Positions 51,623-55,079 of a DNA stretch of 64,000 nucleotides are shown piece after piece. Location: assembly GCA_016783965.1 (NCBI GenBank), contig JADHVO010000003.1:248001-312000 (forward strand), in the 5' to 3' direction. The DNA comes from Alphaproteobacteria bacterium (lineage in GTDB: Bacteria > Pseudomonadota > Alphaproteobacteria > Micropepsales > Micropepsaceae). Under the pieces are notes generated by a model, which had not been told where the DNA came from, did no database searches, and was given only the letters and a program-made list of their open reading frames with translations. The translations under genes were made by a program, and so were the position numbers. Each line of letters begins with the position of its first letter. Position 1 is the stretch's first letter.

Positions 51623-52143
51623 ATCGCCTCCGGGCCGCGGGCTATTGCCGCCACGCCGGTGCGGCTGACGTCGACGAGGCCGAGCGGACGCATCAGGTCG
51701 ACGAACTGGTCGATCTTGCTGGGGGCGCCGGTGATCTCGAACACGAAGCTGGTGTGGGTGGTGTCCACGATGTGGCAACGGAAGATCTCGCCCATGCGCA
51801 TCGCCTCGACCCGCTTCTCGCCGGTGCCGGTGACCTTCACCAGCGCCATCTCGCGCTCGATGCCCGGGGCCGAGGTGGTCCAGTTGTGCACGCGGTGCAC
51901 GGCGACCAGCCGGCGGAGCTGCGCCTCGATCTGCTCGATGACGGCCGGCGTGCCGGATGTCACGATGGTGACGCGCGAGGTGCGCGCCACGTGATCGACC
52001 TCGGCCACAGTAAGGGACTCGATATTGTAGCCGCGGCCGGAGAACAGGCCGACGACGCGCGCGAGCACGCCCGCCTCGTTGTCCACGAGCACAGCGATGG
52101 TGTGGCGTTCGATGTTGGGAAGCTTGGTGGCGGCGGAACTCAT
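51619..52143 (-). CDS. ilvN: Acetolactate synthase regulatory (small) subunit
   Basis: This 174-aa protein has an N-terminal ACT domain (HTIAVLVDNEAGVLARVVGL, FSGRGYNIESLTVA) and a second regulatory half (ALVKVTGTGEKRVEAM). It binds valine and makes the IlvB catalytic subunit feedback-sensitive. Its ATG shares a base with the ilvB stop. Confidence 0.96.
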   Translation of the reverse strand: MSSAATKLPNIERHTIAVLVDNEAGVLARVVGLFSGRGYNIESLTVAEVDHVARTSRVTIVTSGTPAVIEQIEAQLRRLVAVHRVHNWTTSAPGIEREMALVKVTGTGEKRVEAMRMGEIFRCHIVDTTHTSFVFEITGAPSKIDQFVDLMRPLGLVDVSRTGVAAIARGPEAM

Positions 52144-53978
52144 CAGACCAGCATCTTCCCTTCGTCGGACACCTTCGTGCCCTCTTCTTCCGCGTCGCAC
52201 AGGATCATCTCGTTGTGCGCGGCGCCCGAGGGGATCATCGGGTAGCAATTCTCCTTCGGGTCGACGCGGCAGTCGAACAGCACCGGCTTCGGCGAGTTGA
52301 TCATCTCCAGGATCATGGCGTCGAGCTCGTTCGGATTGCTGGCGCGCAGGCCGAGGCAGCCATAGGCCTCCGCCAGCTTCACGAAATCAGGCAGCGCTTC
52401 GGAGTATGAGTGCGAGTAGCGGCCGCCGTGCAGCAGCTGCTGCCATTGGCGCACCATGCCCATATATTCGTTGTTCAGGATGAAGATCTTGATCGGCAGG
52501 TCGTACTGCACCGCCGTCGACATTTCCTGCATCGTCATCTGCACGGATGCCTCGCCCGCGATGTCGATGACCAGCGCGCCGGGATGCGCCATCTGCACAC
52601 CGACCGCGGCCGGCAGGCCGTAACCCATGGTGCCCAGCCCACCGCTCGTCATCCAGCGGTTCGGCGCCTCGAACCTGAAGCGCTGCGCCGCCCACATCTG
52701 GTGCTGGCCGACCTCGGTGGTGATGTAGACGTCGTTGCCGCGATGCTTCGTCAGCTCATAGAGGCGGTCGATAGCATATTGCGGCTTGATCAGGCTCTGC
52801 GAGTTTCTGAAGTCCAGCGATTTGCGCTCGCGCCAGTGGTCGATCTGCTTCCACCACTCTTTGAGTGCCGCCGCATCCACCTTGCGCTTCTGGGTCTTCC
52901 AGAAATGCAGCATCTCCTTCAGCGCCTTGGTGGCGTCGGCGACGATCGGCACGTCGACGTGCACGTTCTTGTTGATCTGCGCCGCGTCGATGTCGAGATG
53001 GATCTTCTTCGAGTCCGGCGAGAACTTGGCAATATTGCCCGTGACGCGGTCGTCGAAGCGGCTGCCCAAGGCAATCATCACGTCGCAATCGTGCATCGCG
53101 TGGTTGGACTCGTAGGTGCCGTGCATACCAACGAGACCCAGCCATTGCGGATCGGACGCGGGAAACGCGCCGAGACCCATGAGGGTGGAAGTAATCGGGA
53201 AGCCGGTGACCTTCACCAGCTCGCGCAGCAGCCGCGACGCTTCGGGGCCGGAGTTGATGATACCGCCGCCGGTGTAGAACAGCGGCCGCTTCGCGTTCGC
53301 CATCAGGTCGATGGCCTTCACGATCGTGCCCAGGTCGGGATCGGTCTTCGGCTTGTAGGTGCGATGCCGGATCGCGTCGGGCATCACATAGGGGCCCTTC
53401 TTGAACTGCACGTCCTTGGGGATGTCGACCACAACGGGACCGGGGCGGCCGGTGGTCGCGATCTGGAACGCCTCGTGCAGGGTGCGCGAGAGATCATTCA
53501 CGTCCTTCACCAGCCAGTTGTGCTTGGTGCAGGCGCGGGTGATGCCGACGGTGTCGGCTTCCTGGAACGCGTCGGTGCCGATCAGGTGCGTCGCGACCTG
53601 GCCGGTCAGCACGATCAGCGGGATCGAGTCCATCAGCGCATCGGTCAGCCCGGTCACCGCGTTGGTGGCGCCGGGGCCGGAGGTCACCAGCACCACGCCG
53701 GGCTTGCCGGTGGACCGCGCATAACCTTCTGCCGCGTGCACGGCGCCTTGCTCGTGTCGAACGAGGACATGGGTGATGCCTTCCGCTGCGAACAGTGCGT
53801 CGTAGATCGGAAGCACGGCACCGCCGGGATAACCGAAGATGTGCTTCACACCCTGATCCTTCAGCGCACGGATCACCATCTCGGCGCCCGAAAGCTCGAT
53901 CGCACCATCGCGCGTCGGCAGGCCCGAGTATTTTTCCAGGGCAGCTCCGCTGCCGGGGGCGTTCCCATCCTTGTCCAT
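52143..53978 (-). CDS. ilvB: Acetolactate synthase catalytic (large) subunit
   Basis: This 611-aa ThDP/FAD enzyme makes acetolactate from pyruvate, the first common step to valine and leucine. It has an N-terminal PYR domain (MVIRALKDQGVKHIFGYPGG with the catalytic-Glu segment VLVRHEQGAVHAAEGYAR), a central FAD domain and a C-terminal PP domain. The ThDP/Mg loop reads IDIAGEASVQMTMQEMSTA, with the NN of FILNNEYMGMVRQW; GEA in place of GDG is usual in alphaproteobacteria. The leader upstream carries an attenuator. Confidence 0.97.
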   Translation of the reverse strand: MDKDGNAPGSGAALEKYSGLPTRDGAIELSGAEMVIRALKDQGVKHIFGYPGGAVLPIYDALFAAEGITHVLVRHEQGAVHAAEGYARSTGKPGVVLVTSGPGATNAVTGLTDALMDSIPLIVLTGQVATHLIGTDAFQEADTVGITRACTKHNWLVKDVNDLSRTLHEAFQIATTGRPGPVVVDIPKDVQFKKGPYVMPDAIRHRTYKPKTDPDLGTIVKAIDLMANAKRPLFYTGGGIINSGPEASRLLRELVKVTGFPITSTLMGLGAFPASDPQWLGLVGMHGTYESNHAMHDCDVMIALGSRFDDRVTGNIAKFSPDSKKIHLDIDAAQINKNVHVDVPIVADATKALKEMLHFWKTQKRKVDAAALKEWWKQIDHWRERKSLDFRNSQSLIKPQYAIDRLYELTKHRGNDVYITTEVGQHQMWAAQRFRFEAPNRWMTSGGLGTMGYGLPAAVGVQMAHPGALVIDIAGEASVQMTMQEMSTAVQYDLPIKIFILNNEYMGMVRQWQQLLHGGRYSHSYSEALPDFVKLAEAYGCLGLRASNPNELDAMILEMINSPKPVLFDCRVDPKENCYPMIPSGAAHNEMILCDAEEEGTKVSDEGKMLV

Positions 53979-54018
53979 CGTCGTCGTCCAGAAAGATCGG
54001 TGAGGTGCTGAAATGATT

Positions 54019-54038
54019 AAGGGGCGTTACCGCCCCTT
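54019..54038 (-). terminator. ilv leader attenuator terminator
   Basis: On the minus strand AAGGGGCG, loop GTAA, CGCCCCTT forms a perfect 8-bp stem followed by the T-rich stretch TTAATCATTT. It sits between the ilv leader peptide and ilvB, about 40 bases before the ilvB ATG, which is where an attenuation terminator belongs. Confidence 0.8.
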
Positions 54039-54045
54039 CGATGCA

Positions 54046-54095
54046 CAGCCGCTGCGTCGGAGCCGGGAGTCTTAGTCCCGTCCGCTCAGCGGCTG
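54046..54095 (-). promoter_or_regulatory. ilv leader alternative stem (pause/antiterminator region)
   Basis: CAGCCGCTG (54095-54087 on the minus strand) is perfectly complementary to CAGCGGCTG (54054-54046). Inside, CGGGA and TCCCG (54076-54080 with 54064-54068) form a smaller hairpin whose loop holds the leader-peptide stop codon. A ribosome stalled on the Leu-Val-Leu-Ile codons would keep the left strand from pairing. The exact switch to the terminator is not resolved by eye. Confidence 0.6.
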
Positions 54096-54122
54096 TCGAA
54101 TAAGTACGAGCTGGGTCGTCAT
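54072..54122 (-). CDS. ilvL: ilvBN leader peptide (16 aa)
   Basis: The frame reads MTTQLVLIRQPLSGRD and stops with TAA in the loop of the inner leader hairpin. Codons 5-8 are Leu-Val-Leu-Ile, exactly the end products of the pathway. It starts only about 11 bases after the -10 element, with no Shine-Dalgarno, so it is probably translated leaderless or nearly so, as known for other alphaproteobacterial attenuator peptides. Attenuation of ilvBN has been reported in Caulobacter. Confidence 0.82.
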   Translation of the reverse strand: MTTQLVLIRQPLSGRD

Positions 54123-54132
54123 GGTGCGGCGC

Positions 54133-54161
54133 AAACTAGGGAAACCCCGATTCGGCGTCAA
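54133..54161 (-). promoter_or_regulatory. Probable sigma-70 promoter of the ilv operon
   Basis: On the minus strand TTGACG (54161-54156) and TAGTTT (54138-54133) are separated by 17 bases. The expected transcription start falls at or just before the ilv leader-peptide ATG (54122). The -35 element begins 7 bases after the miaA stop. Confidence 0.65.
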
Positions 54162-54167
54162 GCAATT

Positions 54168-55079
54168 TTATCTAAGGAATTGTCGCATTGCAGAAACAAT
54201 GTTGCTTTGCATGCCATCCATGCGCGGCCAGTCGGAGAGCTGGTTTCGGAACCAGGTGTCCTGGCGCTTGGCGTACTGGCGGGTGGCGATGACGGCCTTT
54301 TCGACCGCCTCGTCCCTCGTCAAGACGCCGTTGTGCCAGTCGAGCAACTCGCGGCGGCCGATGATGCGGGCGGCGGGCAGCGCAGGGTCGAGATCTTCCA
54401 ACGCGAGCGCCTCTTCCATCGCGCCGGCGGCGACCATGGCGCGGAAACGGTCGTCGATGCGCTGCCATAGAACCTCGCGCGGGACGTCGATGACGAAGGC
54501 CGCGAGCCTGAGACCGTCGAGCACCGGCTTGCCCTCGTTCTTCTGCCAGAAGGCGAGGCTCCGGCCGGAGGCTTCGAGCACCTCCCACGCCCGCAGCATG
54601 CGCTGGCTGTCGCCGGGGTTGAGCTGCGCGCCCATCTCGGCATCGCGCGCGGCGAGGCGGGCGTGGAATTCCGCGTTGCCGATCTCGGCGAGAAGGCTGC
54701 GTGTCACCTCGCGCACACCGCTGGGCACTTCGGGAATTTCCGAGAGGCCGTCGGTGAGGGCGCGGAAATAAAGGCCGGTGCCGCCGACGAAGATCGGAAT
54801 GCGGTGTACCGCACGCACCTCGTGCAGCGCATGGCCGGCGTCCTGCTGATACCTACCCGTGGAATAGGGCTCGCGTGCGGGAACATGCCCGTAGAGCAGA
54901 TGCGGGACGCGGGCTGTGTCGACGTCGGACGGACGCGCCGTCAGGATGCGCGGCTCGCGATAGACCTGCATGGAATCCGCGTTGACGATAATGCCGCCGA
55001 CGGCTTCGGCCAGTTCCAGGGCGGCTTGCGACTTGCCGCTGGTGGTGGGGCCTGCGATAAGAATGGCGTCGACGGACAC
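54168..55079 (-). CDS. miaA: tRNA dimethylallyltransferase
   Basis: This roughly 303-aa enzyme adds a dimethylallyl group to A37 of tRNAs reading UNN codons. Motifs: P-loop LIAGPTTSGKSQAAL, NADSMQVYREPRILTARPS, FVGGTGLYFRALTDGLSEIP and the C-terminal ATRQYAKRQDTWFRNQ. I use the GTG at 55079, which gives the usual short N-terminus before the P-loop; a GTG at 55118 would overlap the divergent gene by 25 bases. MiaA loss affects leader-peptide attenuation in enteric bacteria, which makes its position next to the ilv attenuator worth noting. Confidence 0.94.
   Translation of the reverse strand: MSVDAILIAGPTTSGKSQAALELAEAVGGIIVNADSMQVYREPRILTARPSDVDTARVPHLLYGHVPAREPYSTGRYQQDAGHALHEVRAVHRIPIFVGGTGLYFRALTDGLSEIPEVPSGVREVTRSLLAEIGNAEFHARLAARDAEMGAQLNPGDSQRMLRAWEVLEASGRSLAFWQKNEGKPVLDGLRLAAFVIDVPREVLWQRIDDRFRAMVAAGAMEEALALEDLDPALPAARIIGRRELLDWHNGVLTRDEAVEKAVIATRQYAKRQDTWFRNQLSDWPRMDGMQSNIVSAMRQFLR

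What the first reader, a model, noticed from the sequence alone, without database searches (positions are those of the whole stretch)
54019..54161. Complete ilvBN attenuator: promoter, near-leaderless leader peptide, antiterminator-like stem and terminator
Within 145 bases there is a TTGACG/TAGTTT promoter, a 16-aa peptide with Leu-Val-Leu-Ile, a 9-bp long-range stem and a GC terminator with T-rich tail. The leader ATG sits about 11 bases from the -10, implying leaderless translation. The promoter abuts the 3' end of miaA, whose tRNA modification influences leader-peptide translation in other bacteria.
Basis: partly seen in the sequence, partly recalled or inferred. Interest (0 to 1): 0.6.

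Follow-up and report, generated by a model that had tools for sequence, protein, structure and literature searches.

The report
Leader-peptide attenuator before valine-synthesis genes
In front of the valine, leucine and isoleucine synthesis genes of this bacterium lies a short test-peptide gene followed by a stop signal for transcription, a familiar kind of starvation switch; it is real and kept by close relatives, always with the same rare valine codon, but its type was already known.

Summary
On the minus strand between miaA and ilvB lie a promoter, a 16-aa leader peptide (MTTQLVLIRQPLSGRD), a long hairpin P1 (10-bp outer helix) enclosing the leader's stop codon, and a GC-rich terminator hairpin with a GNRA loop. 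The combination occurs once in the window and in 0 of 10 shuffled windows, and recurs in 29 of 29 full-length same-genus ilvB loci, the window's included. Leader plus terminator also stands before ilvB in 52 of 80 wider loci. Alphaproteobacterial ilvB leader-peptide attenuation is in print: a new member of a known kind. Added detail: the rare codon GUA is invariant in the 29 leaders (GTA 32 of 43 Val codons there, 6 of 294 in nine window genes); translation start changed between near-leaderless and longer-leadered at least three times. The 10-bp stem is not an antiterminator; no dedicated antiterminator was detected. P1 keeps the terminator's 5' arm free, and masking P1's 5' arm removes that protection, though one folding result runs against this.

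The parts
54156..54161 (-). -35 element TTGACG
   Evidence: Sequence; TTGACG in 28 of 29 same-genus loci; L015 lacks it.
54133..54138 (-). -10 element TAGTTT after a 17-nt spacer
   Evidence: Sequence; spacer 17 in 27 and 18 in 1 of 28 scored loci, -10 matching TATAAT at 3-4 of 6.
54072..54122 (-). Leader peptide ORF MTTQLVLIRQPLSGRD, stop included
   Evidence: an ORF in the corresponding place, ending before the terminator, in 29 of 29 loci.
54099..54110 (-). Control codons CTC GTA CTT ATT
   Evidence: GTA in 29 of 29 leaders; codon bias.
54045..54096 (-). P1 hairpin; outer helix 54096-54087 with 54054-54045; stop codon TAA 54074-54072 in the apical loop
   Evidence: alifold pairs with compensatory changes; arm complementarity mean z -3.96, 28 of 29 at p<0.05.
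54011..54038 (-). Terminator-like hairpin 54038-54019 with GTAA loop and interrupted T-rich tail to 54011
   Evidence: not called by the strict scan.
52143..53978 (-). ilvB, acetolactate synthase large subunit, the regulated gene; ilvN follows
   Evidence: Pfam TPP enzyme domains; ilvN by ALS_ss_C.
54162..54205 (-). Possible upstream promoter element: GCAACATTGTTTC 54205-54193 inside the end of miaA and ATTGC 54166-54162 abutting the -35
   Evidence: best match to GCAATATTATTGC (8-13 of 13 letters) starts exactly 44 nt before the -35 in 25 of 29 loci; exceptions L015, L022, L023, L029. Function unknown.

Best explanation
A ribosome-mediated transcription attenuator of the ilvBN operon. Inferred working: transcription starts a few bases before the leader AUG and a ribosome loads on the nearly leaderless RNA. 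When charged tRNA-Val(UAC), tRNA-Leu(GAG) and tRNA-Ile are plentiful, the ribosome passes CUC-GUA-CUU-AUU, reaches the stop codon and leaves; hairpin P1 around the stop codon closes, the terminator's 5' arm stays free, the terminator forms and transcription ends. When Val (or Leu, Ile) is short, the ribosome stalls on the control codons, covers the 5' arm of P1 and keeps its outer helix open; freed strands can then pair with the terminator's 5' arm as it emerges and polymerase reads on into ilvB. Shown here: the parts, their conservation, the rare-codon bias, covariation in P1, and that a closed P1 keeps the terminator arm free in folding. Inferred: transcription start, translation, stalling, termination and its relief.
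For: Arrangement in 29 of 29 full-length same-genus loci. GTA 32 of 43 leader Val codons against 6 of 294 in nine window genes; in 52 wider leaders GTA 65 of 90 against 24 of 2,320 in the same ilvB genes. 8 of 16 alifold pairs with two-sided compensatory changes; P1 arms mean z -3.96. Terminator 5' arm paired 0.30 with P1 able to form (shuffles 0.65, 0 of 29 above the shuffle mean), 0.56-0.67 when masked to GTA+15..+27. One site in the window, 0 in 10 shuffled windows. Precedent in Caulobacter ilvBN (PMC4117421, passages).
Against: No dedicated antiterminator: post-stop segment and outer 3' arm pair with the terminator's 5' arm no better than shuffles, and masked values are at shuffle level. 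With the whole leader unmasked the terminator arm is paired 0.62, more than with any masked ribosome position (0.45-0.56), which runs against the simple model. A ribosome at the stop lowers pairing only to 0.50-0.44 (stop+12, +15; it is 0.68 at stop+3), whereas in E. coli controls it falls to 0.00-0.21. Equilibrium terminator probability is 0.97 or more in every state; it also varies little in the E. coli controls (0.57-0.96). Strict scan calls no promoter or terminator. No expression data.
Confidence: 0.88

Rival explanations
1. A classical trp-type three-way switch with a distinct 2:3 antiterminator hairpin that differs between species and escaped this analysis.
For: The positive control is only moderately sensitive: thrL and ilvL stand out clearly, trpL, leuL and ivbL weakly. 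At GTA+27 18 of 29 leaders exceed their shuffle mean, 5 at 0.1 or less. The base composition (C/U-rich post-stop stretch, G-rich terminator arm) allows pairing of mean -8.1 kcal/mol.
Against: No segment beyond P1's own arms is clearly selected to pair with the terminator arm; the inner part of P1 remains foldable with the ribosome on the control codons.
Confidence: 0.35
2. The terminated leader RNA, or its peptide, also acts in trans, as rnTrpL and peTrpL do in Sinorhizobium meliloti.
For: trpL precedent (PMC7298713, passages); the Rhizobiales ilvB leaders coincide with Rfam Atu_C8, filed as an sRNA.
Against: No target was sought here. Outside control codons, C-terminal residues and P1, the leaders vary.
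Confidence: 0.15
3. The main control is by a DNA-binding regulator at the element upstream of the promoter, the leader being secondary.
For: Element at a fixed 44 nt before the -35 in 25 of 29 loci, and AAATTGC next to the -35.
Against: No regulator identified; the element lies within miaA coding sequence; the leader is at least as conserved. In the own genome 25 matches with up to one mismatch against 7 for the reversed pattern, only one exact.
Confidence: 0.1
4. Chance: a short ORF, a hairpin and a weak terminator that are not functional.
For: Strict consensus scan finds neither promoter nor terminator.
Against: Conservation in 29 of 29 loci, codon bias, compensatory changes, 0 of 10 shuffled windows.
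Confidence: 0.02

Closest known systems
Caulobacter crescentus ilvBN attenuator (Tarleton, Malakooti and Ely 1994; paper not held; seen through passages and a reference entry of PMC4117421)
   Same: Same operon type and class; leader with Ile and Val codons and a Rho-independent terminator relieved by ribosome pausing, as that paper describes it.
   Different: Leader and terminator sequences here belong to another genus; nothing has been measured here.
Alphaproteobacterial ilvB leader peptide of Vitreschak et al. 2004 (not opened; named as previously described in PMC1273637, passages)
   Same: ilvB leader peptide in alphaproteobacteria.
   Different: I could not compare sequences or predicted antiterminators with that paper.
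Rfam RF02502 Atu_C8
   Same: In Rhizobiales it lies on the ilvB leader (L098, L087), with leader peptide, long hairpin and terminator.
   Different: The window does not match it; Rfam files it as an sRNA gene.
Sinorhizobium meliloti trpL attenuator, rnTrpL (PMC7298713, passages)
   Same: Attenuator whose RNA starts with, or here probably near, the leader's AUG.
   Different: Trp operon; its RNA and peptide act in trans, untested here.
Corynebacterium glutamicum ilvBNC attenuator (PMC11857589, abstract)
   Same: ilv operon attenuator with terminator, antiterminator and anti-antiterminator hairpins; P1 is comparable to the last in role.
   Different: Actinobacterium; hairpins tested there by mutation, P1's role only inferred here.

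Membership tests
Ribosome-mediated (leader-peptide) transcription attenuator | Short leader ORF with control codons for the amino acids made by the operon | tested here: met
   MTTQLVLIRQPLSGRD before ilvBN; GTA in 29 of 29 leaders; ORF in place in 29 of 29.
Ribosome-mediated (leader-peptide) transcription attenuator | Intrinsic terminator between leader and first gene | tested here: met
   Anatomy only: conserved GC-rich hairpin with T-rich tail in 29 of 29; tail interrupted and not called by the strict scan. Termination not measured.
Ribosome-mediated (leader-peptide) transcription attenuator | Mutually exclusive antiterminator that forms when the ribosome stalls | tested here: inconclusive
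   No dedicated pairing beyond shuffles; P1 closure frees and masking P1 releases pairing of the terminator arm, but the unmasked leader also pairs it, 0.62.
Ribosome-mediated (leader-peptide) transcription attenuator | Read-through rises on starvation and depends on leader translation | not testable with these tools
   Needs experiment.
Rfam RF02502 Atu_C8 | Match to the covariance model | tested here: not met
   No match at gathering score over the window, nor among matches with E up to 10 in 53700-54400.
Leaderless mRNA | Transcript begins at or within a few bases of the start codon | tested here: inconclusive
   Predicted 5' UTR about 3 nt from the -10 position; transcription start not mapped.

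The most novel reading that the evidence does not exclude
Alphaproteobacterial ilvB attenuators share a design not spelled out in the papers seen: the sensor is tuned to particular isoacceptors (GUA read by tRNA-Val(UAC), CUC/CUU rather than CUG for Leu), and the switch is one long hairpin enclosing the leader's stop codon that protects the terminator directly, so that no dedicated antiterminator helix is needed; the way translation starts has been free to change at least three times within one genus.
Probability: 0.35. Interest if true: 0.5.

Novelty: new member of a known kind. Interest (0 to 1): 0.3.

Why it matters
It settles the likely control element of ilvBN in a little-known alphaproteobacterial genus and gives 29 aligned natural variants. 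The invariant GUA and the rarity of CUG among control codons fit the selective-charging theory of control codons (PMC1183508, passages). Natural changes between near-leaderless and longer-leadered leaders would let one test how initiation mode affects attenuation. It also shows that the Rfam 'sRNA' Atu_C8 lies on the ilvB attenuator leader in two Rhizobiales loci.

Tried and rejected
Dedicated antiterminator: post-stop segment, outer 3' arm, P1 5' arm, control codons and leader start were tested against the terminator's 5' arm, and all but the leader start against its 3' arm too, with dinucleotide shuffles. Only P1's own arms stand out; the P1 5' arm against the terminator's 5' arm is slightly stronger than chance (mean z -0.87, z<0 in 22 of 29, p<0.05 in 4 of 29) but would have the wrong logic for a starvation switch. 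An extension of P1 into the terminator arm through the control codons, seen in single folds, was rejected: mean z 0.03, and the wrong sign.

miaA influence on the control codons: rejected. UNN codons are 34 of 435 leader codons after the start in the 29 leaders and none is among the window's four control codons; L019 has TTG before its GTA. That MiaA acts on tRNAs reading UNN codons is general knowledge, not a call.

Other leaders of this sequence type in the same genome: model R1 finds only this site. Rfam: nothing at the site. A regulon for the upstream element was not pursued. Literature: one search lists 2 papers with at least four of five terms, neither with 'GUA codon'; one search lists 7 papers, of which I opened PMC7298713, PMC4117421 and PMC10117765 only. 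So absence from print is claimed only for these searches.

Full report
What is there. On the minus strand the order is miaA (55118-54168), a 189-nt gap, ilvB (53978-52143), ilvN, two small ORFs and ilvC (domains). The gap holds TTGACG-17-TAGTTT, the leader ORF MTTQLVLIRQPLSGRD (54122-54072), a hairpin P1 with a perfect 10-bp outer helix whose apical loop contains the leader's stop codon, and a terminator-like hairpin AAGGGGCG-GUAA-CGCCCCUU followed by AAUCAUUU. The leader region folds at -55.2 kcal/mol, z -3.6. A composite detector gives this one site in the window and none in 10 shuffled windows. The strict consensus scan found no promoter or terminator.

Conservation in the genus. Of 61 genomes searched with IlvB, 37 (own included) are of the same genus; 29 have a full-length close IlvB, one (G010) is split by contig ends, and seven (G002, G003, G011, G013, G019, G023, G032) show only distant matches or none. 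All 29 full-length loci, the window's included, carry leader, P1 and terminator in the same order; only L015 lacks a recognisable -35. G010 carries them too, read by eye. L030, the one locus of another family among the 30 fetched, has no such terminator or leader by the criteria used. A covariance model of the 29 finds one site in the own genome and 8 of 385 genomes sampled across the class at E <= 0.01 with strict filters: own, two others of the genus, and five others with weak scores, of which only G172 was looked at. Of two further relatives in that sample without a match, G273 (same genus) has no close ilvB and G354 (another genus of the family, L130) keeps GTA-CTT-ATT before a differently spelled terminator; L129 (G172, another family) has CTC-GTA-GTG with a third terminator. 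So the architecture is wider than this sequence version.

Wider class. 80 named ilvB loci were fetched by similarity. By their titles they are alphaproteobacterial except L031, titled Mucilaginibacter; L031-L033 resemble the window's genus, and L032's contig has the same length as that of L011. An automatic criterion found leader plus terminator in 52 of 80; the 28 misses are not counted as absences, since L046 and L106 among them show leaders by eye. Rhizobiales loci L098 and L087, two of six loci scanned, coincide with Rfam RF02502 Atu_C8, filed as an sRNA gene.

Control codons. GTA is in 29 of 29 genus leaders. Counting whole leaders: Val GTA 32 of 43 against 6 of 294 in nine window ORFs; Ile ATT 19 of 28 against 16 of 215; Leu CTT 23 of 61 against 23 of 314. 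In the branched-chain run of the 52 wider leaders GTA is 65 of 90 Val codons against 24 of 2,320 in the same ilvB genes; CTG is 0 of 75 Leu codons against 1,357 of 2,278; ATT 40 of 69 against 225 of 2,020; 48 of 52 leaders contain GTA. The CTG avoidance is not absolute: CTG stands next to GTA in L017 and L023, and whole genus leaders hold 17 CTG, largely in the P1 part. Among the 42 tRNA genes found in the own genome there is one tRNA-Val for each of GAC, UAC and CAC and one tRNA-Leu for each of five anticodons, GAG among them; no tRNA-Ile(GAU) was among them. Selective-charging theory offers a reason for such choices (PMC1183508, passages).

Start of translation. The -10-to-start gap is bimodal in 28 loci: 7-12 nt in 16 (strongest anti-SD pairing -3.2 kcal/mol; the window has 10 nt, predicted 5' UTR about 3 nt) and 22-45 nt in 12, 9 of them with anti-SD pairing of -4.5 or stronger. 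On a quick ilvB tree (5 of 27 inner branches open) the fewest changes of state are three; the window and L002/L003 lie among the longer-gap loci, so their near-leaderless start is probably derived. L002/L003 also have an in-frame GTG that could be the start. Leaderless trpL is known from S. meliloti (PMC7298713), and 375 leaderless mRNAs were mapped in Caulobacter (PMC4117421).

How it switches. RNAalifold gives P1 and the terminator; 8 of 16 pairs have two-sided compensatory changes. P1's arms are far more complementary than shuffles (mean z -3.96, 28 of 29 at p<0.05). I then asked how often the terminator's 5' arm is paired before its partner is made. Masked to GTA+8, so that P1 can form, it is paired 0.30 (shuffles 0.65; 0 of 29 above the shuffle mean). 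Masked to GTA+15, +21, +27, as by a ribosome on the control codons, it is 0.56, 0.57, 0.67 (shuffles 0.66, 0.60, 0.62). At stop+3, +12, +15 it is 0.68, 0.50, 0.44. So P1 protects the arm and opening P1 removes the protection, with the right sign for a starvation switch, but at shuffle level, with no dedicated antiterminator. Against this: with no mask at all the arm is paired 0.62, through the leader's 5' part, and in that series the masked values are 0.45-0.56. Equilibrium terminator probability stays at 0.97 or more in all states. In the same test of E. coli leaders, thrL and ilvL show an antiterminator clearly (0.70-0.80 against 0.36-0.44), trpL, leuL and ivbL weakly, and the arm is freed to 0.00-0.21 beyond; so the negative is of moderate weight and the family differs from the controls in the poor release at the stop codon.

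Known or new. Attenuation of Caulobacter ilvBN through a leader with Ile and Val codons is reported (PMC4117421, passages citing Tarleton et al. 1994), and an alphaproteobacterial ilvB leader peptide was called previously described in 2005 (PMC1273637, passages). The finding is a new member of that kind. What I did not find in the listings and passages seen is the GUA/CUY preference across the class and the repeated change of initiation mode.

The miaA point. The promoter abuts miaA, and in 32 of the 80 wider loci a miaA match ends within 450 nt of ilvB, but the control codons are not of the UNN type read by MiaA-modified tRNAs (general knowledge). A different feature there is notable: a GCAATATTATTGC-like element starting exactly 44 nt before the -35 in 25 of 29 loci, inside the end of miaA, and AAATTGC abutting the -35. 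It may be a regulator or UP-type site, or partly reflect the MiaA tail; it was not resolved.

Noticed in passing
54205-54193 and 54166-54162 (minus strand), and the same place in L002-L029: GCAATATTATTGC-like element at a fixed 44 nt before the -35 in 25 of 29 loci, inside the 3' end of miaA, plus ATTGC abutting the -35. One exact site in the genome.
   Followed up: partly
L098 2817-2937; L087 2801-2919: Rfam family RF02502 Atu_C8, filed as a Rhizobiales sRNA gene, lies on the ilvB leader with its peptide and terminator: it looks like the attenuator leader.
   Followed up: partly
G002, G013, G023, G273 (same-genus genomes, 95-100% complete): No IlvB match at E <= 1e-100: possible loss of branched-chain amino acid synthesis in part of the genus; other genes not checked.
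   Followed up: no
51778-50976, minus strand: Two small ORFs between ilvN and ilvC; the second (51290-50979 tested) has no Pfam family, the first was not searched.
   Followed up: no
L031 (JAUCSE010000134.1): A contig titled Mucilaginibacter sp. carries an ilvB and leader like those of this alphaproteobacterial genus; probably a mislabelled or mixed bin.
   Followed up: no
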